From NCBI GenBank assembly GCA_013140985.1, contig JABFRU010000015.1, forward strand, positions 1 to 64,000: a stretch of 64,000 nucleotides of DNA, written 5' to 3'. The first letter of the stretch is position 1. Every line of letters starts with the position of its first letter. The position numbers were made by a program, and so were the translations under genes. The notes below the pieces were generated by a model. That model had not been told where the DNA came from, ran no database searches, and saw only the letters and a list, made by a program, of their open reading frames with translations. Source of the stretch: Chitinophagaceae bacterium. Lineage in GTDB: Bacteria; Bacteroidota; Bacteroidia; Chitinophagales; Chitinophagaceae. This document shows, piece after piece, positions 11,687-60,976 of this stretch.

Positions 11687-11767
11687 ATGTGGAAATGTGT
11701 GAATGTGAAAGTGTGAGAATTGGCTGGCTTCATTTACACATTTCCATATTTCCACATTCTCACATTA
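11687..11767. repeat. word-type inverted repeat (TGTGGAAATGTG)
   Basis: The left arm is built from AATGTGGAAATGTGTG followed by AATGTGAAAGTGTGAG. The right arm is its approximate complement, with TTTCCA and CACATT words. It fills almost the whole gap between two convergent genes. The same word recurs at 23718-23791 and 51897-52505. Confidence 0.8.
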
Positions 11768-11772
11768 GGGTA

Positions 11773-12792
11773 TTATTTCCAAACGATCTTCCCGATCTTG
11801 CCATTTCCTCCTGCCAGAAAAATGGAAGTGCCAATTTTTGCAATGCGGCAAACATGAAAACCTTCTTTGCTGATCCATCGCCAGTCCCTGCCGCCGTTCA
11901 ATGAATAGTCAACACCGTTTAGACCGCAACTGAACACATCTGTTTTGGAAACATATTCCACACAACTCCGGTAGCCATTCGGAGGGGTAGAAGGTTCATG
12001 CCAGGTCTTACCACCATCGCTGCTGATAAAACAATTTTTTTGTGAAGAAGAATCTGCATTGAAATCGCCGCCGACAACGATCATATTTTTACCGCCCTTT
12101 CTTTTGTATGTATCCCATACAGAAATTGAATTGGCGCCGGTGGTTTCTTTTCCCTGTATGATCGGCATGGAAATGATCTCATCTCTTTTGTATAATCTTG
12201 ATTTCAATCCGCCACTTACAAATACAGCTTCATCTTTATCCAATACACGGATATTGGTGCCGCTGGCAGCAAAACAGGCTTCACCACTATCGGCTACGGG
12301 TCGCTTGTCAAAAGGGATATCCTGCCAGGTAGAACCGCCATCAAATGTTCTGGAAATAAAAAATCTTCCGTCAATGGGATCGCCGATCACAATGCCGGCC
12401 TGCTCATTCCAGAATTCCATGGCATCCAAAAACATTCCTTTGGTTTTGTTTTCATATACTACTTTCCATGTTTCGCCGCCATCCATTGTTTTTAAAATAT
12501 AAGCCGGTTCGGCAATACCCATGATGATGGCATTGCTGGCATCAAAGGCTTCGATGTCTCTGAAATCTGTTTTTTCAAATCCTTTTACAGTGATCCATTT
12601 CCAGTTCTTGCCTCCATTATTGGACTTGCCAACAGTACCATTGCTGCCGCTTACCCAAATGATATTATCATTTACCACACTCAATCCTCGGATACTTGTC
12701 CTGGTGCCCGAAGTGAGTACTTCAACAGAAGGGGTTTGTGCAGGAAGGAGTTTAACTAAGGATATAAATAAAAAAAGAAGTATTGATCTCAT
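11773..12792 (-). CDS. secreted beta-propeller protein (BNR/HCF136-like)
   Basis: Start at 12792 (MRSILLFLFISLVKLLPAQ) gives a signal peptide; the upstream in-frame ATG at 12858 would add 22 residues. Repeated blocks of the form S.DGG.TW or NNGGKNW (GKSNNGGKNWKW, KTMDGGETWK, RTFDGGSTWQD, ISSDGGKTWHE, SLNGGRDWRW) mark six or so blades of a BNR/Asp-box propeller of the kind found in YCF48/HCF136 and sialidase-like folds. No sialidase catalytic set is visible, so it is probably a binding or assembly factor. In Bacteroidota such proteins are often annotated as oxidoreductases without support. It is followed upstream by a secreted phosphoesterase on the same strand. Confidence 0.82.
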   Translation of the reverse strand: MRSILLFLFISLVKLLPAQTPSVEVLTSGTRTSIRGLSVVNDNIIWVSGSNGTVGKSNNGGKNWKWITVKGFEKTDFRDIEAFDASNAIIMGIAEPAYILKTMDGGETWKVVYENKTKGMFLDAMEFWNEQAGIVIGDPIDGRFFISRTFDGGSTWQDIPFDKRPVADSGEACFAASGTNIRVLDKDEAVFVSGGLKSRLYKRDEIISMPIIQGKETTGANSISVWDTYKRKGGKNMIVVGGDFNADSSSQKNCFISSDGGKTWHEPSTPPNGYRSCVEYVSKTDVFSCGLNGVDYSLNGGRDWRWISKEGFHVCRIAKIGTSIFLAGGNGKIGKIVWK

Positions 12793-12796
12793 AGTA

Positions 12797-12890
12797 TGGG
12801 AAGATAATAAGAAATAAGGAATGAAAAATAAGAAATGAAGAAGTGTAGAGCCCGCCAATCAAAAACCCAAAATCAAAAATCCAAAATTCC
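12797..12890. repeat. two adjacent low-complexity word arrays
   Basis: Words such as AATAAGAAAT and GAATGAAAAATAAG are followed by words such as AATCAAAAACCCAAAATC. The two halves are not complementary to each other. They resemble single arms of the word-type inverted repeats elsewhere in the window. Confidence 0.55.
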
Positions 12891-59100: not shown

Positions 59101-59622
59101 AATGACTGGCTTATTAAATTCAGGTGGAATCTAAGTAATACTTTTTCTTTATCTGTAAATGGTAAGAAAGGAGCGAATGCATTGTACACTCCGCAATTTG
59201 CCAATCGTAATTACCAGCTTTCTGTTTATAGTGTTGAACCGTTCCTGGCTTACATCAAGAGCACTAAATTTAGAATTGTAACAAGCTATAAATATGATAA
59301 TAAAAAAAACCTGCCATTGTATGGCGGAGAGAAATCAACTTCACATTCTGTCAATGTTGAGTCGAAATACAATATTCTTCAAAGCACTTCTTTAACAGGA
59401 AAATTCACTTTTAATAATATTGATTATAAATCCCCGGCGAATACAACAGTAAGTTATATCATGCTGGATGGATTATTGCCGGGCAAAAACTACCTCTGGT
59501 CTTTTGGGTTATCTAAAAGATTGCTGAATAATCTTGAATTGAATTTTCAATATGATGGAAGAAAAGCAGGCGCTTCGAGAACGGTGCATATTGGAAGGGC
59601 GGCGATCACGGCACTATTTTGA
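56146..59622 (+). CDS. large outer-membrane beta-strand protein with EF-hand-like loop
   Basis: TTG at 56146 gives a plausible signal peptide ending PSGAQ; an ATG at 56182 would shorten it. The 1,158 residues are mostly amphipathic beta strands ([62 protein letters not shown]), as in a large outer-membrane barrel. Near residue 835-850 is [16 protein letters not shown], a calcium-type D-x-N-x-D-G loop, followed by [20 protein letters not shown]. Blocks like this last one occur in SprA-like and related gliding/T9SS outer-membrane proteins (from memory), but at half the length of SprA it is not SprA itself. It is divergent from the PKD/T9SS gene. Confidence 0.75.
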   Translation: [1158 protein letters not shown]

Positions 59623-59720
59623 TTTGGAAATTTGAAGATGAGCCGATTTGAAGATTGAGAAAACGGGGTCATAGAAGTTGCCCTATTATCAAATTTTCAA
59701 ATCACCAAATCTTCAAATCA
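59620..59720. repeat. word-type inverted repeat (GATTTGAAGATTTGA)
   Basis: The left arm 59620-59659 contains the stop codon of the outer-membrane protein; the right arm 59686-59720 overlaps the 3' end of ychF. The words are GATTTGGAAATTTGAAGATG and its complement. Confidence 0.8.
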
Positions 59721-60815
59721 AACATTGAATCTAAAATGCATCACATCCCCATCCTTCACCACATATTCTTTTCCTTCGATCCTTAATTTACCGGCATCAC
59801 GGCAGGCAGCTTCAGAACCGTATTGCACATAATCATCATAGCTGATCACTTCGGCTTTGATAAAACCTTTTTCAAAATCCGTATGAATAACACCGGCAGC
59901 CTGGGGAGCTTTCCATCCTTCCTGTATGGTCCATGCCCTTACTTCCTGCACACCGGCAGTAAAATAGGTGTATAATTTTAGAAGTTTATAAGCAGAATGG
60001 ATCAACCTGTCCAGTGCCGGCTCTGTCATTTTATACTCATCCATGAATAATTTTTTATCATCAGCATTTTCCATTTCTGCTATTTGAGATTCAATGGTAT
60101 TGTTCATGACGATCATTTCGGCATCTTCATCTTTTATCGCCGCTTTCAGTGCTTCGGAATATTTGTTACCGGTATGCATGGAAGCTTCATCCACATTGGC
60201 TACATATAATATCGGCTTGTCTGTTAACAAGAAAAGGTCAGCGATCGCTACTTTTTCATCTTTTGAAAGATCGAGTTCCCGGATGCTTTTGCCTTTTTCC
60301 AAATGCTCCTTGCATCGGGTCAATACTTCCAATTCAGATTTTAATTTGGGATCGACACGGGCCATTTTTTCTGTCTTCGAGATTTTTCGTTCAACCGCAT
60401 CAAGATCTTTTAATTGAAGTTCGGTATCAATGATTTCTTTATCGCTGACAGGATTGATCGCTCCTTCATCTCTTAAAATATTCTCATCTTCAAAACAACG
60501 GATCACATGAATGATGGCATCCACTTCACGGATATTGGCCAAAAATTTATTCCCTAAACCTTCTCCTTTGCTGGCGCCACGAACAAGGCCTGCAATATCA
60601 ACGATCTCTATTTGAGTAGGAACGATACGGTCAGGGTGAACTAACCCGGCCAACTTATTCAGCCTTGGATCGGGTACATCCACTAATCCTACATTGGGAT
60701 CAATTGTGCAAAAGCGATAATTGCTTGCCTGTGCTTTAGCACTATTGCTAACCGCATTAAATAAAGTTGATTTTCCTACATTGGGTAATCCTACAATTCC
60801 AGCCTGTAACGCCAT
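59718..60815 (-). CDS. ychF: redox-regulated ATPase YchF
   Basis: Obg-family P-loop protein that prefers ATP. Walker A is GLPNVGKST (9-17), followed by the switch motif [31 protein letters not shown]; the G4 motif is degenerate (ANVDE), the reason for the ATP preference. A coiled-coil insert spans about 130-200, and a TGS domain ends the protein ([41 protein letters not shown]). YchF regulates the oxidative-stress response and binds ribosomes. It is divergent from spmAB across a word repeat. Confidence 0.95.
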
Positions 60816-60820
60816 ATTTT

Positions 60821-60976
60821 AGTTTATAGTTTAAGGTTTATAGCTTAGGGTTACTAAGTGCTATAAACCTGGTCATTTTTTAAGGCGGCGAAGATACGCA
60901 ATTCAGTTTTTGCAGGCATATATTACTATACTTAAACTCCTTAACTTCAAACAATAAACTATAAACCATAAACTCA
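60821..60976. repeat. word-type inverted repeat (GTTTATAGTTTAAGG) between divergent genes
   Basis: The left arm 60821-60850 uses AGTTTATAGTTTAAGG and GTTTATAGCTTAGGG. The right arm 60947-60976 holds ACAATAAACTATAAACC and ATAAACT. A further copy of CTATAAACC sits at 60861-60869. Both divergent promoters (ychF and spmAB) must lie within or beside it. Confidence 0.75.

What the first reader, a model, noticed from the sequence alone, without database searches (positions are those of the whole stretch)
11687..60976. Intergenic 'word palindromes': at least ten long inverted repeats each built from one short degenerate word
Seen directly: gaps at 11687, 18018, 23718, 26325, 30303, 41884, 48140, 51897/52471, 59620 and 60821 each hold two arms of about 25-40 bases. 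Each arm is several copies of a short word (for example TGTGGAAATGTG, GGTTTAAAGG, GTGAATGGTCAATGG, AATTACGATTTG, GATTTGAAGA, GTTTATAGTTTAAG), and the arms are approximate reverse complements with the word order sometimes changed. Three words recur at more than one locus. Several arms contain the stop codon of the preceding gene. They lie in convergent, co-directional and divergent gaps, so they are not simply terminators. I know no named family that fits; they could be RNA 3'-end stabilisers, a REP-like mobile family, or products of slippage with template switching.
Basis: seen in the sequence. Interest (0 to 1): 0.75.

Follow-up and report, generated by a model that had tools for sequence, protein, structure and literature searches.

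The report
Repeat-word palindromes tied to S23 genes
Odd mirror-image stretches between genes, built from repeated seven- or eight-letter DNA words, look like the casing of an element that sometimes carries the gene for a little-understood ring protein (S23/IVP) in many kinds of bacteria, which gives both the repeats and the protein a testable role.

Summary
The palindromes are real: 44 strong inverted repeats lie in gaps of 464 kb of this genome against 1 after shuffling. The missing piece is a protein. The two far-apart arms at 51897 and 52471 are one element holding a gene of the S23/"23S rRNA intervening-sequence protein" (IVP) family, between sdhA and sdhB. Inverted word arms flank the IVP gene at 43 of 53 loci in the genus (controls: 2 of 204 other ORFs) and at 52 of 80 loci across many phyla and one archaeon (swapped flanks 15 of 640). 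Five genomes without IVP matches have no word palindrome in 40.6 kb of gaps; eleven with them have 73 in 181.5 kb. The word strand has more G than C in 94 of 95 IVP elements; the period is 7 or 8 in 86 of 91. Related IVPs at unlike sites tend to use related words. The sdhA-sdhB gap is empty in 19 of 24 species, filled in 5. Best reading: intergenic relatives of rRNA intervening sequences, mostly gene-less, whose words are read by a pentameric IVP ring. Shown: anatomy, association, patchy occupancy. Inferred: word binding, mobility. How they move is unknown.

The parts
11685..11766 (.). gene-less word palindrome, word ATGTGNNA, convergent gap
   Evidence: score 52, loop 17
18018..18150 (.). gene-less word palindrome, words AATTACG/GATTTGGG, co-directional gap
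   Evidence: score 63, loop 63
23714..23787 (.). gene-less word palindrome, word ATGTGNNA; left arm runs over the stop codon of ORF 22874-23728
   Evidence: score 40
26326..26468 (.). gene-less word palindrome, word GTTTAAAG, convergent gap
   Evidence: score 60, loop 78
30304..30383 (.). gene-less word palindrome, word GTSAATN
   Evidence: score 53
41881..41984 (.). gene-less word palindrome, word AGATAAAAACTAA
   Evidence: score 48
48136..48259 (.). gene-less word palindrome, word GTTTAAAG
   Evidence: score 56
51891..51921 (.). left arm of the IVP-bearing element, word ATGTGNNA, runs over the sdhA stop codon
   Evidence: arm pair score 58
52003..52064 (+). short inverted repeat just before the IVP start codon
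   Evidence: 21-nt arms, 81%; role unknown
52065..52418 (+). IVP/S23 gene, 117 aa, in the loop of the element between sdhA and sdhB
   Evidence: PF05635 E 1.9e-21; PDB 2rld E 3e-23, 5 chains
52480..52510 (.). right arm of the IVP-bearing element (words run from 52470), abuts sdhB
   Evidence: arm pair score 58; tandem 8-mers
59630..59718 (.). gene-less word palindrome, word GATTTGAA, convergent gap
   Evidence: score 46
60817..60974 (.). gene-less word palindrome, word GTTTATA, divergent gap beside ychF
   Evidence: score 47; orthologous gap compared
   Evidence: score 45; no IVP partner among the 14 G000 IVPs compared

Best explanation
The word palindromes are the body of a family of small selfish-type elements that belong with S23/IVP genes. 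A full element is: inward-facing array of about five degenerate 7-8 nt words, leader, IVP gene, then the same array inverted. Most copies are gene-less: two arrays around a short unrelated spacer. The IVP has solved relatives that form a pentameric ring of four-helix bundles. I propose that the ring binds the word array as a single strand, one word per subunit, with the fixed letters as contacts, much as the TRAP ring reads KAGNN repeats (recalled). Each IVP lineage keeps its own word family and acts in trans on gene-less arrays with that word. The 23S rRNA intervening sequences are the same kind of element lodged in rRNA. SHOWN: anatomy, IVP-arm association, IVP-word co-variation, low dN/dS of IVP, presence/absence between species. 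INFERRED: word binding, stoichiometry, action in trans, mobility. UNKNOWN: the strand-transfer step.
For: Inverted arms of score 40+ flank 43 of 53 IVP loci of the genus versus 2 of 204 control ORFs of 90-250 aa; swapped flanks 16 of 551. Three of the 53 (window, L047, L156) were added knowing their arms; without them 40 of 50. Across phyla 52 of 80 versus 15 of 640 swapped. Word palindromes: 73 in 181.5 kb gap of 11 IVP+ genomes, 0 in 40.6 kb of 5 IVP-free genomes, p 8e-7. IVP similarity predicts word similarity after dropping pairs with alike flanks: Spearman 0.257, permutation p 0.0005, 46 of 49 intact IVPs, 1009 of 1035 pairs. In G000 17 of 41 gene-less elements match an own IVP's word at 13 or more, none on average for equal numbers of other genomes' IVPs, p 6e-5; G038 p 0.01. 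One of two predictions noted beforehand held: G038's second IVP has GATGARGG arms. IVP dN/dS 0.04-0.15 in four pairs, dS above 1 in three of them. Period 7 in 69 and 8 in 17 of 91; about 4.7 words per left arm; G>C in 94 of 95. Five-chain PDB homologues 2gsc, 2rld; toroidal homopentamer (PMC4990558 passage; reference title in PMC10053308). Coxiella IVS: 28-bp terminal stem, S23 ORF in the loop, tandem heptamers before it (PMC4990558 passages).
Against: 10 of 53 genus loci and 28 of 80 others lack arms of 40. Loops of same-word gene-less elements are unrelated (6 of 68 pairs below p 0.02, 1.4 expected, one pair being a single locus counted twice), so they are not plain copies of one unit. No near-identical IVP copies among the 12 of 16 G000 IVPs compared (closest 0.69 of self score). 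The second prediction failed: G020's second IVP does not have GTTTAGGGAACAG arms. Not every word family has an IVP partner: G012 0 of 10 at the strong level, G020 inconclusive; G038 GTAGAAGG unpaired. IVP count tracks palindrome density only moderately (rho 0.58, p 0.019, n 16); G030, G023 and G011 with 12, 9 and 6 IVPs have 1, 1 and 0 in 80, 80 and 40 kb. Ten word-like repeats lie in called coding DNA, one of them in IVP-free G019. The two most variable word positions are adjacent in 17 of 46, about chance, so a spacer reading is not confirmed. No clean insertion site or target duplication was found. No partner enzyme identified: reverse transcriptase and Y1 transposase are not required. Four of five IVP-free genomes are small ones.
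Confidence: 0.6

Rival explanations
1. The arms are regulatory sites: IVP is a TRAP- or CsrA-like RNA-binding regulator, its own leader is autoregulated, and the gene-less palindromes are its regulon at gene ends and leaders. Nothing is mobile.
For: Arms sit within 25 nt of gene edges on both sides in 34 of 71; dN/dS 0.04-0.15; G-rich words come first in a transcript from either side.
Against: Orthologous gaps are empty or filled in a patchy way (sdhA-sdhB 19 empty, 5 filled of 24), words at the ychF gap differ between species, 12 of 71 gaps are divergent so that one RNA does not carry both arms.
Confidence: 0.15
2. The palindromes arise by slippage and template switching at gene edges, and the IVP gene is a passenger that inserts into ready-made hairpin loops, as rRNA intervening sequences sit in rRNA helices.
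For: Mirrored word order: the true order pairs best in 49 of 66 against 17.7 expected; at the ychF gap arms of one species match each other (45.0) but not arms of other species (17.8-19.0) (seven loci chosen for pairing); loops unrelated. Template switching can keep stems paired (PMC8794818, abstract and passages).
Against: No word palindromes in gaps of five IVP-free genomes; IVP type and word type co-vary at unlike sites; the fixed polarity in 94 of 95 is not expected of blind slippage.
Confidence: 0.14
3. REP/BIME elements moved by a RAYT (Y1) transposase.
For: Short intergenic palindromes in many copies; Y1 matches in 18 of 42 genomes (17 over the cut-off), 5 matches in G000.
Against: No Y1 match in G038, G020, G026 or G029, which have word palindromes or an IVP element.
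Confidence: 0.02
4. Bidirectional transcription terminators or RNA 3'-end protectors.
For: Folds better than shuffles on both strands; 16 convergent and 43 co-directional of 71.
Against: 12 of 71 divergent, with a promoter-like TAnnTTTG motif (recalled) inside the ychF loop of several species (by eye); no wobble bias (34 v 23, 42 v 47); most species lack any element at sdhA-sdhB.
Confidence: 0.03

Closest known systems
23S rRNA intervening sequences (IVS) with S23/IVP ORF (Coxiella, Leptospira)
   Same: Terminal inverted repeats forming a stem, S23 ORF in the loop, tandem heptamers in the 5' part (Coxiella; PMC4990558 passages)
   Different: The window elements lie between protein genes, not in rRNA; most lack the ORF; arms are degenerate word arrays in many families per genome
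Cyanobacterial STRR heptanucleotide repeats and Beggiatoaceae TAACTGA repeats
   Same: Tandem heptamers; TAACTGA repeats are intergenic and patchy over Beggiatoaceae, Cyanobacteria and a few Bacteroidetes without known mechanism (PMC4679880 abstract and passages); STRR from recall and one reference title
   Different: TAACTGA arrays are described as direct repeats with one inverted case, and 's23' does not occur in that paper's text
Avd of diversity-generating retroelements
   Same: Same protein family: L121 IVP hits PHROG 3206 'Avd protein of DGR', 6.3e-8, though the window IVP and L184 do not; DGR homing needs a DNA hairpin/cruciform (PMC3240598 passages); PF05635 resembles Avd (PMC10053308 passages)
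   Different: No reverse transcriptase match in G000, G038 or G020; a TR/VR pair was not sought
REP/BIME with RAYT
   Same: Many short intergenic palindromes
   Different: Arms are tandem words; Y1 transposase not needed

Membership tests
23S rRNA intervening sequence | lies inside a 23S (or 16S) rRNA gene | tested here: not met
   No Rfam match in the window or in the 20 of 80 cross-phylum loci searched; window element lies between sdhA and sdhB
23S rRNA intervening sequence | terminal inverted repeats enclosing an S23/IVP ORF | tested here: met
   43 of 53 genus loci, 52 of 80 others; only for the ORF-bearing minority of palindromes
23S rRNA intervening sequence | excised from the transcript by RNase III | not testable with these tools
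   needs RNA data
REP/BIME-RAYT | Y1 (RAYT) transposase in the genome | tested here: not met
   no match in G038, G020, G026, G029
REP/BIME-RAYT | GTAG or CGTC tag at one end (PMC3733652, title and start of abstract in the listing) | not tested
   not scanned
Diversity-generating retroelement | reverse transcriptase | tested here: not met
   RVT_1 in 6 of 42 genomes, none in G000
Diversity-generating retroelement | Avd-family accessory protein | tested here: met
   family level only: PF05635; PHROG 3206 for 1 of 3 IVPs scanned
MITE (deletion copy of an autonomous transposon) | copies alike over their whole length | tested here: not met
   loops of same-word elements unrelated
MITE (deletion copy of an autonomous transposon) | target-site duplication and precise empty site | tested here: inconclusive
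   empty sdhA-sdhB gaps exist but are too diverged to place the junction
Intrinsic terminator | sits at 3' ends, short GC-rich stem followed by a T run | tested here: not met
   12 of 71 divergent; long mismatched AT-rich stems; the T run was not scored

The most novel reading that the evidence does not exclude
The words are written on the spot rather than copied with the element: an IVP-guided activity adds G-rich tandem words to both 3' ends at an opened gap, like telomere repeats, and the ends are joined head to head. That would explain the near-universal G-first, C-last polarity (the polarity of a telomere fusion), the same word around unrelated loops, and arms that fill a gap edge to edge. 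Mirrored word order speaks against two independent additions, unless the second arm is copied by fold-back.
Probability: 0.08. Interest if true: 0.95.

Novelty: new variant of a known kind. Interest (0 to 1): 0.8.

Why it matters
If they are the reading heads of word-array elements, one system would account for rRNA intervening sequences and these palindromes, and perhaps for unexplained heptamer repeats (STRR, TAACTGA), and would offer a TRAP-like ring with many natural sequence specificities. It also gives a direct bench test: does each IVP bind its own word?

Tried and rejected
Rfam search of the window and of 20 of the 80 cross-phylum loci: nothing. Y1 transposase and reverse transcriptase as partner enzymes: not required. 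RNA-strand selection by wobble bias: none, on the 41 + 43 ungapped arm pairs of 95. A two-letter spacer in the words: variable positions exist (29 of the 68 elements that passed the filters, 3.4 expected) but the two most variable are not adjacent more than chance (17 of 46). Unbiased scan of 1059 ORFs with 150-nt flanks: 9 at 42 or more, the best one an IVP gene, the other 8 not IVP; the window's own IVP was missed because its left arm starts 174 nt before the gene. A first density test gave rho 0.80 with 11 genomes; with five genomes added and two enlarged it fell to 0.60 on all repeats and 0.58 on word-like ones. IVP-free G031 has 4 repeats of 40+, AT-rich by eye, none word-like. A pair of species (G001, G026, roughly 90% alike) gave one relevant difference, at sdhA-sdhB, too diverged to place junctions. 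Plasmid searches gave 59 IVP hits, of which I opened four: a duplicated block on two Calothrix plasmids and two DISARM-linked IVPs, no empty site. IVP-free status rests on a six-frame profile search of draft genomes. Six of the 30 sdhB loci could not be resolved.
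Full report
WHAT IS THERE. The window is contig C79:1-64000 of a 3.86-Mb genome, G000, a Bacteroidota judging by its CHU_C/T9SS domain gene. I scanned the window and twenty further 20-kb stretches of the genome (464 kb) for inverted repeats. At score 40 or more gaps hold 44 against 1 after one dinucleotide shuffle, coding DNA 10 against 12. 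Many arms are arrays of degenerate 7-8-letter words, different families at different gaps. In stretches of 16 genomes of the genus, with a word-like filter at score 36 and loop 8 or more, I count 73 in gaps, 10 in coding DNA and 2 in shuffled gaps.

THE GENE IN THE LOOP. The tenth place is the key. The arms at 51891-51921 and 52480-52510 belong together (score 58) and enclose a 117-aa ORF of Pfam PF05635, 23S rRNA-intervening sequence protein, between sdhA and sdhB. Of 42 genomes in the genus, 30 have matches, 16 of them in G000. I examined 53 IVP loci of the genus: one for each of the 30 positive genomes, eleven more of G000, eight more of G012, and four others (window, L047, L156, L200). Inverted arms of score 40 or more within 220 nt on both sides occur at 43 of 53 (48 at 36 or more), against 2 of 204 other ORFs of 90-250 aa (7 at 36 or more) and 16 of 551 mismatched flank pairs. 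The window, L047 and L156 were chosen knowing their arms; without them it is 40 of 50.

BEYOND THE GENUS. Arms of 40 or more: 52 of 80 (57 at 36 or more), against 15 of 640 swapped flank pairs. Examples: GGAACTC in Geobacter, GGGAGTC in Phormidium, GGCAGTC in Bosea, CGTAAAT in a deltaproteobacterium. The remaining loci were not examined for single arrays. Twenty of the 80, searched with Rfam, showed no rRNA.

RULES OF THE ARMS. Over the 95 IVP elements with arms of 40 or more (43 genus, 52 others), the word strand, that is the 5' arm on either strand, has more G than C in 94; the period is 7 in 69, 8 in 17 and something else in 5 of the 91 with a clear period; left arrays hold about 4.7 words (quartiles 4.3-5.8; the count grows in whole words, so it is rough). 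Gene-less palindromes show the same polarity, 64 to 5, with 4 ties. Word positions differ in variability (29 of 68 elements at p<0.05, 3.4 expected), and the true word order pairs best in 49 of 66 (17.7 expected), so the arms are mirrored beyond sharing a word; the arms compared had been picked by pairing score. Mismatches show no excess of G-U compatible kinds for the sense strand (34 v 23, p 0.18; 42 v 47, p 0.67).

IVP PREDICTS THE PALINDROMES. Genomes with no IVP match (G016, G019, G021, G022, G031; 480 kb sampled, 40.6 kb gap) have no word palindrome in gaps (one word-like repeat in coding DNA of G019); eleven IVP-bearing genomes have 73 in 181.5 kb gap (p 8e-7; rho 0.58, p 0.019, n 16). 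Small genomes are not the whole reason: G020 and G038 (about 2 Mb, two IVPs each) have 8 and 21. Four of the five negatives are small genomes and may be one lineage, so these are not five independent cases; G031 is larger (2.6 Mb). Related IVPs tend to carry related words at unlike sites, for example L182 and L185 (GTSAATN) in G000; the effect is real but modest (rho 0.257). Gene-less elements of G000 match words of G000's own IVPs (17 of 41 at the strong level, none on average for other genomes' IVPs; p 6e-5), likewise G038 (p 0.01), but G012 does not (0 of 10) and G020 is inconclusive. I noted beforehand that the second IVP of G038 should have GATGARGG arms and that of G020 GTTTAGGGAACAG arms. 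The first came out right, the second did not: its arms are GGTTGAACAATGG, matched by one gene-less element.

PATCHY OCCUPANCY. In 24 species with a resolved sdhA-sdhB gap (of 30 loci), 19 have 16-49 bp and five are filled: IVP elements in G000, G029 and G033, a gene-less palindrome in G001, and by eye a word arm in G014; coordinates put an IVP beside sdhB in G041 too. G001 and G026, roughly 90% alike, differ here. At the gap before ychF, of 29 loci with enough sequence, 7 of 20 IVP-bearing and 0 of 9 IVP-free species have a repeat of 36 or more, with different words in different species. IVP genes look kept by selection (dN/dS 0.11, 0.07, 0.15, 0.04 in four pairs, dS above 1 in three; four further pairs were saturated).

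HOW IT MAY WORK. Solved relatives 2gsc and 2rld each hold five chains, and the Xanthomonas protein is described as a toroidal homopentamer (PMC4990558 passage; reference title in PMC10053308). About five words per arm and a five-fold ring suggest one word per subunit on a single strand, as TRAP reads its triplets (recalled). From either direction a transcript or new strand exposes the G-words first and their complement later. This step is inference. So is mobility: loops of same-word elements are unrelated, no fresh copy or target duplication was seen, and the enzyme that would move the element is unknown; reverse transcriptase and Y1 transposase are not needed.

COMPARISON. The Coxiella 23S intervening sequence has a like anatomy: 28-bp terminal stem, S23 ORF in the loop and tandem heptamers before the ORF (PMC4990558, passages). 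The window elements are not members by location. TAACTGA heptamers (PMC4679880, abstract and passages) and STRRs (recall; title only) may be related but were not tested. The ten literature searches listed no paper that joins these facts; I saw passages of eight papers (searches give seven; PMC3733652 and others only as listings).

Noticed in passing
window 4289-4371; L040:4807; L043:14528; L081:5593: A CACAAAG/CACTAAG word family, some with C-rich 5' arms against the usual polarity, and without an IVP partner among the G000 and G012 IVPs compared; it may be a separate system.
   Followed up: partly
L111:1553-1900 (G026): A small ORF that looks like a GIY-YIG nuclease (by eye, not searched) lies between inverted arms (score 47), so other genes may ride in similar shells.
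   Followed up: no
L323, L324 (Planktothrix agardhii plasmids): A 'four helix bundle protein' gene sits between drmD of a DISARM locus and an MmeI- or PglX-annotated gene in two strains.
   Followed up: no
L148, L149, L150, L181: IVP genes with in-frame stops beside intact ones elsewhere: some IVP copies are decaying.
   Followed up: no
window 60817-60974 and L051-L080: A promoter-like TATCTTTGC motif (TATCTTCGC in the window) lies in the loop of the divergent ychF gap, so the arms would form the leaders of both genes (by eye).
   Followed up: partly
window 13869-13900: A 90% palindrome AGCTATTAGCTAATAGCT without a loop, word like that of the IVP element L183.
   Followed up: no
window 14648-15414: A 291-bp unit repeated 2.6 times inside the ORF 14180-16222.
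   Followed up: no
window 32831-32959: A weak inverted repeat (40-nt arms, 70%) filling the gap before 32959, without clear words.
   Followed up: no
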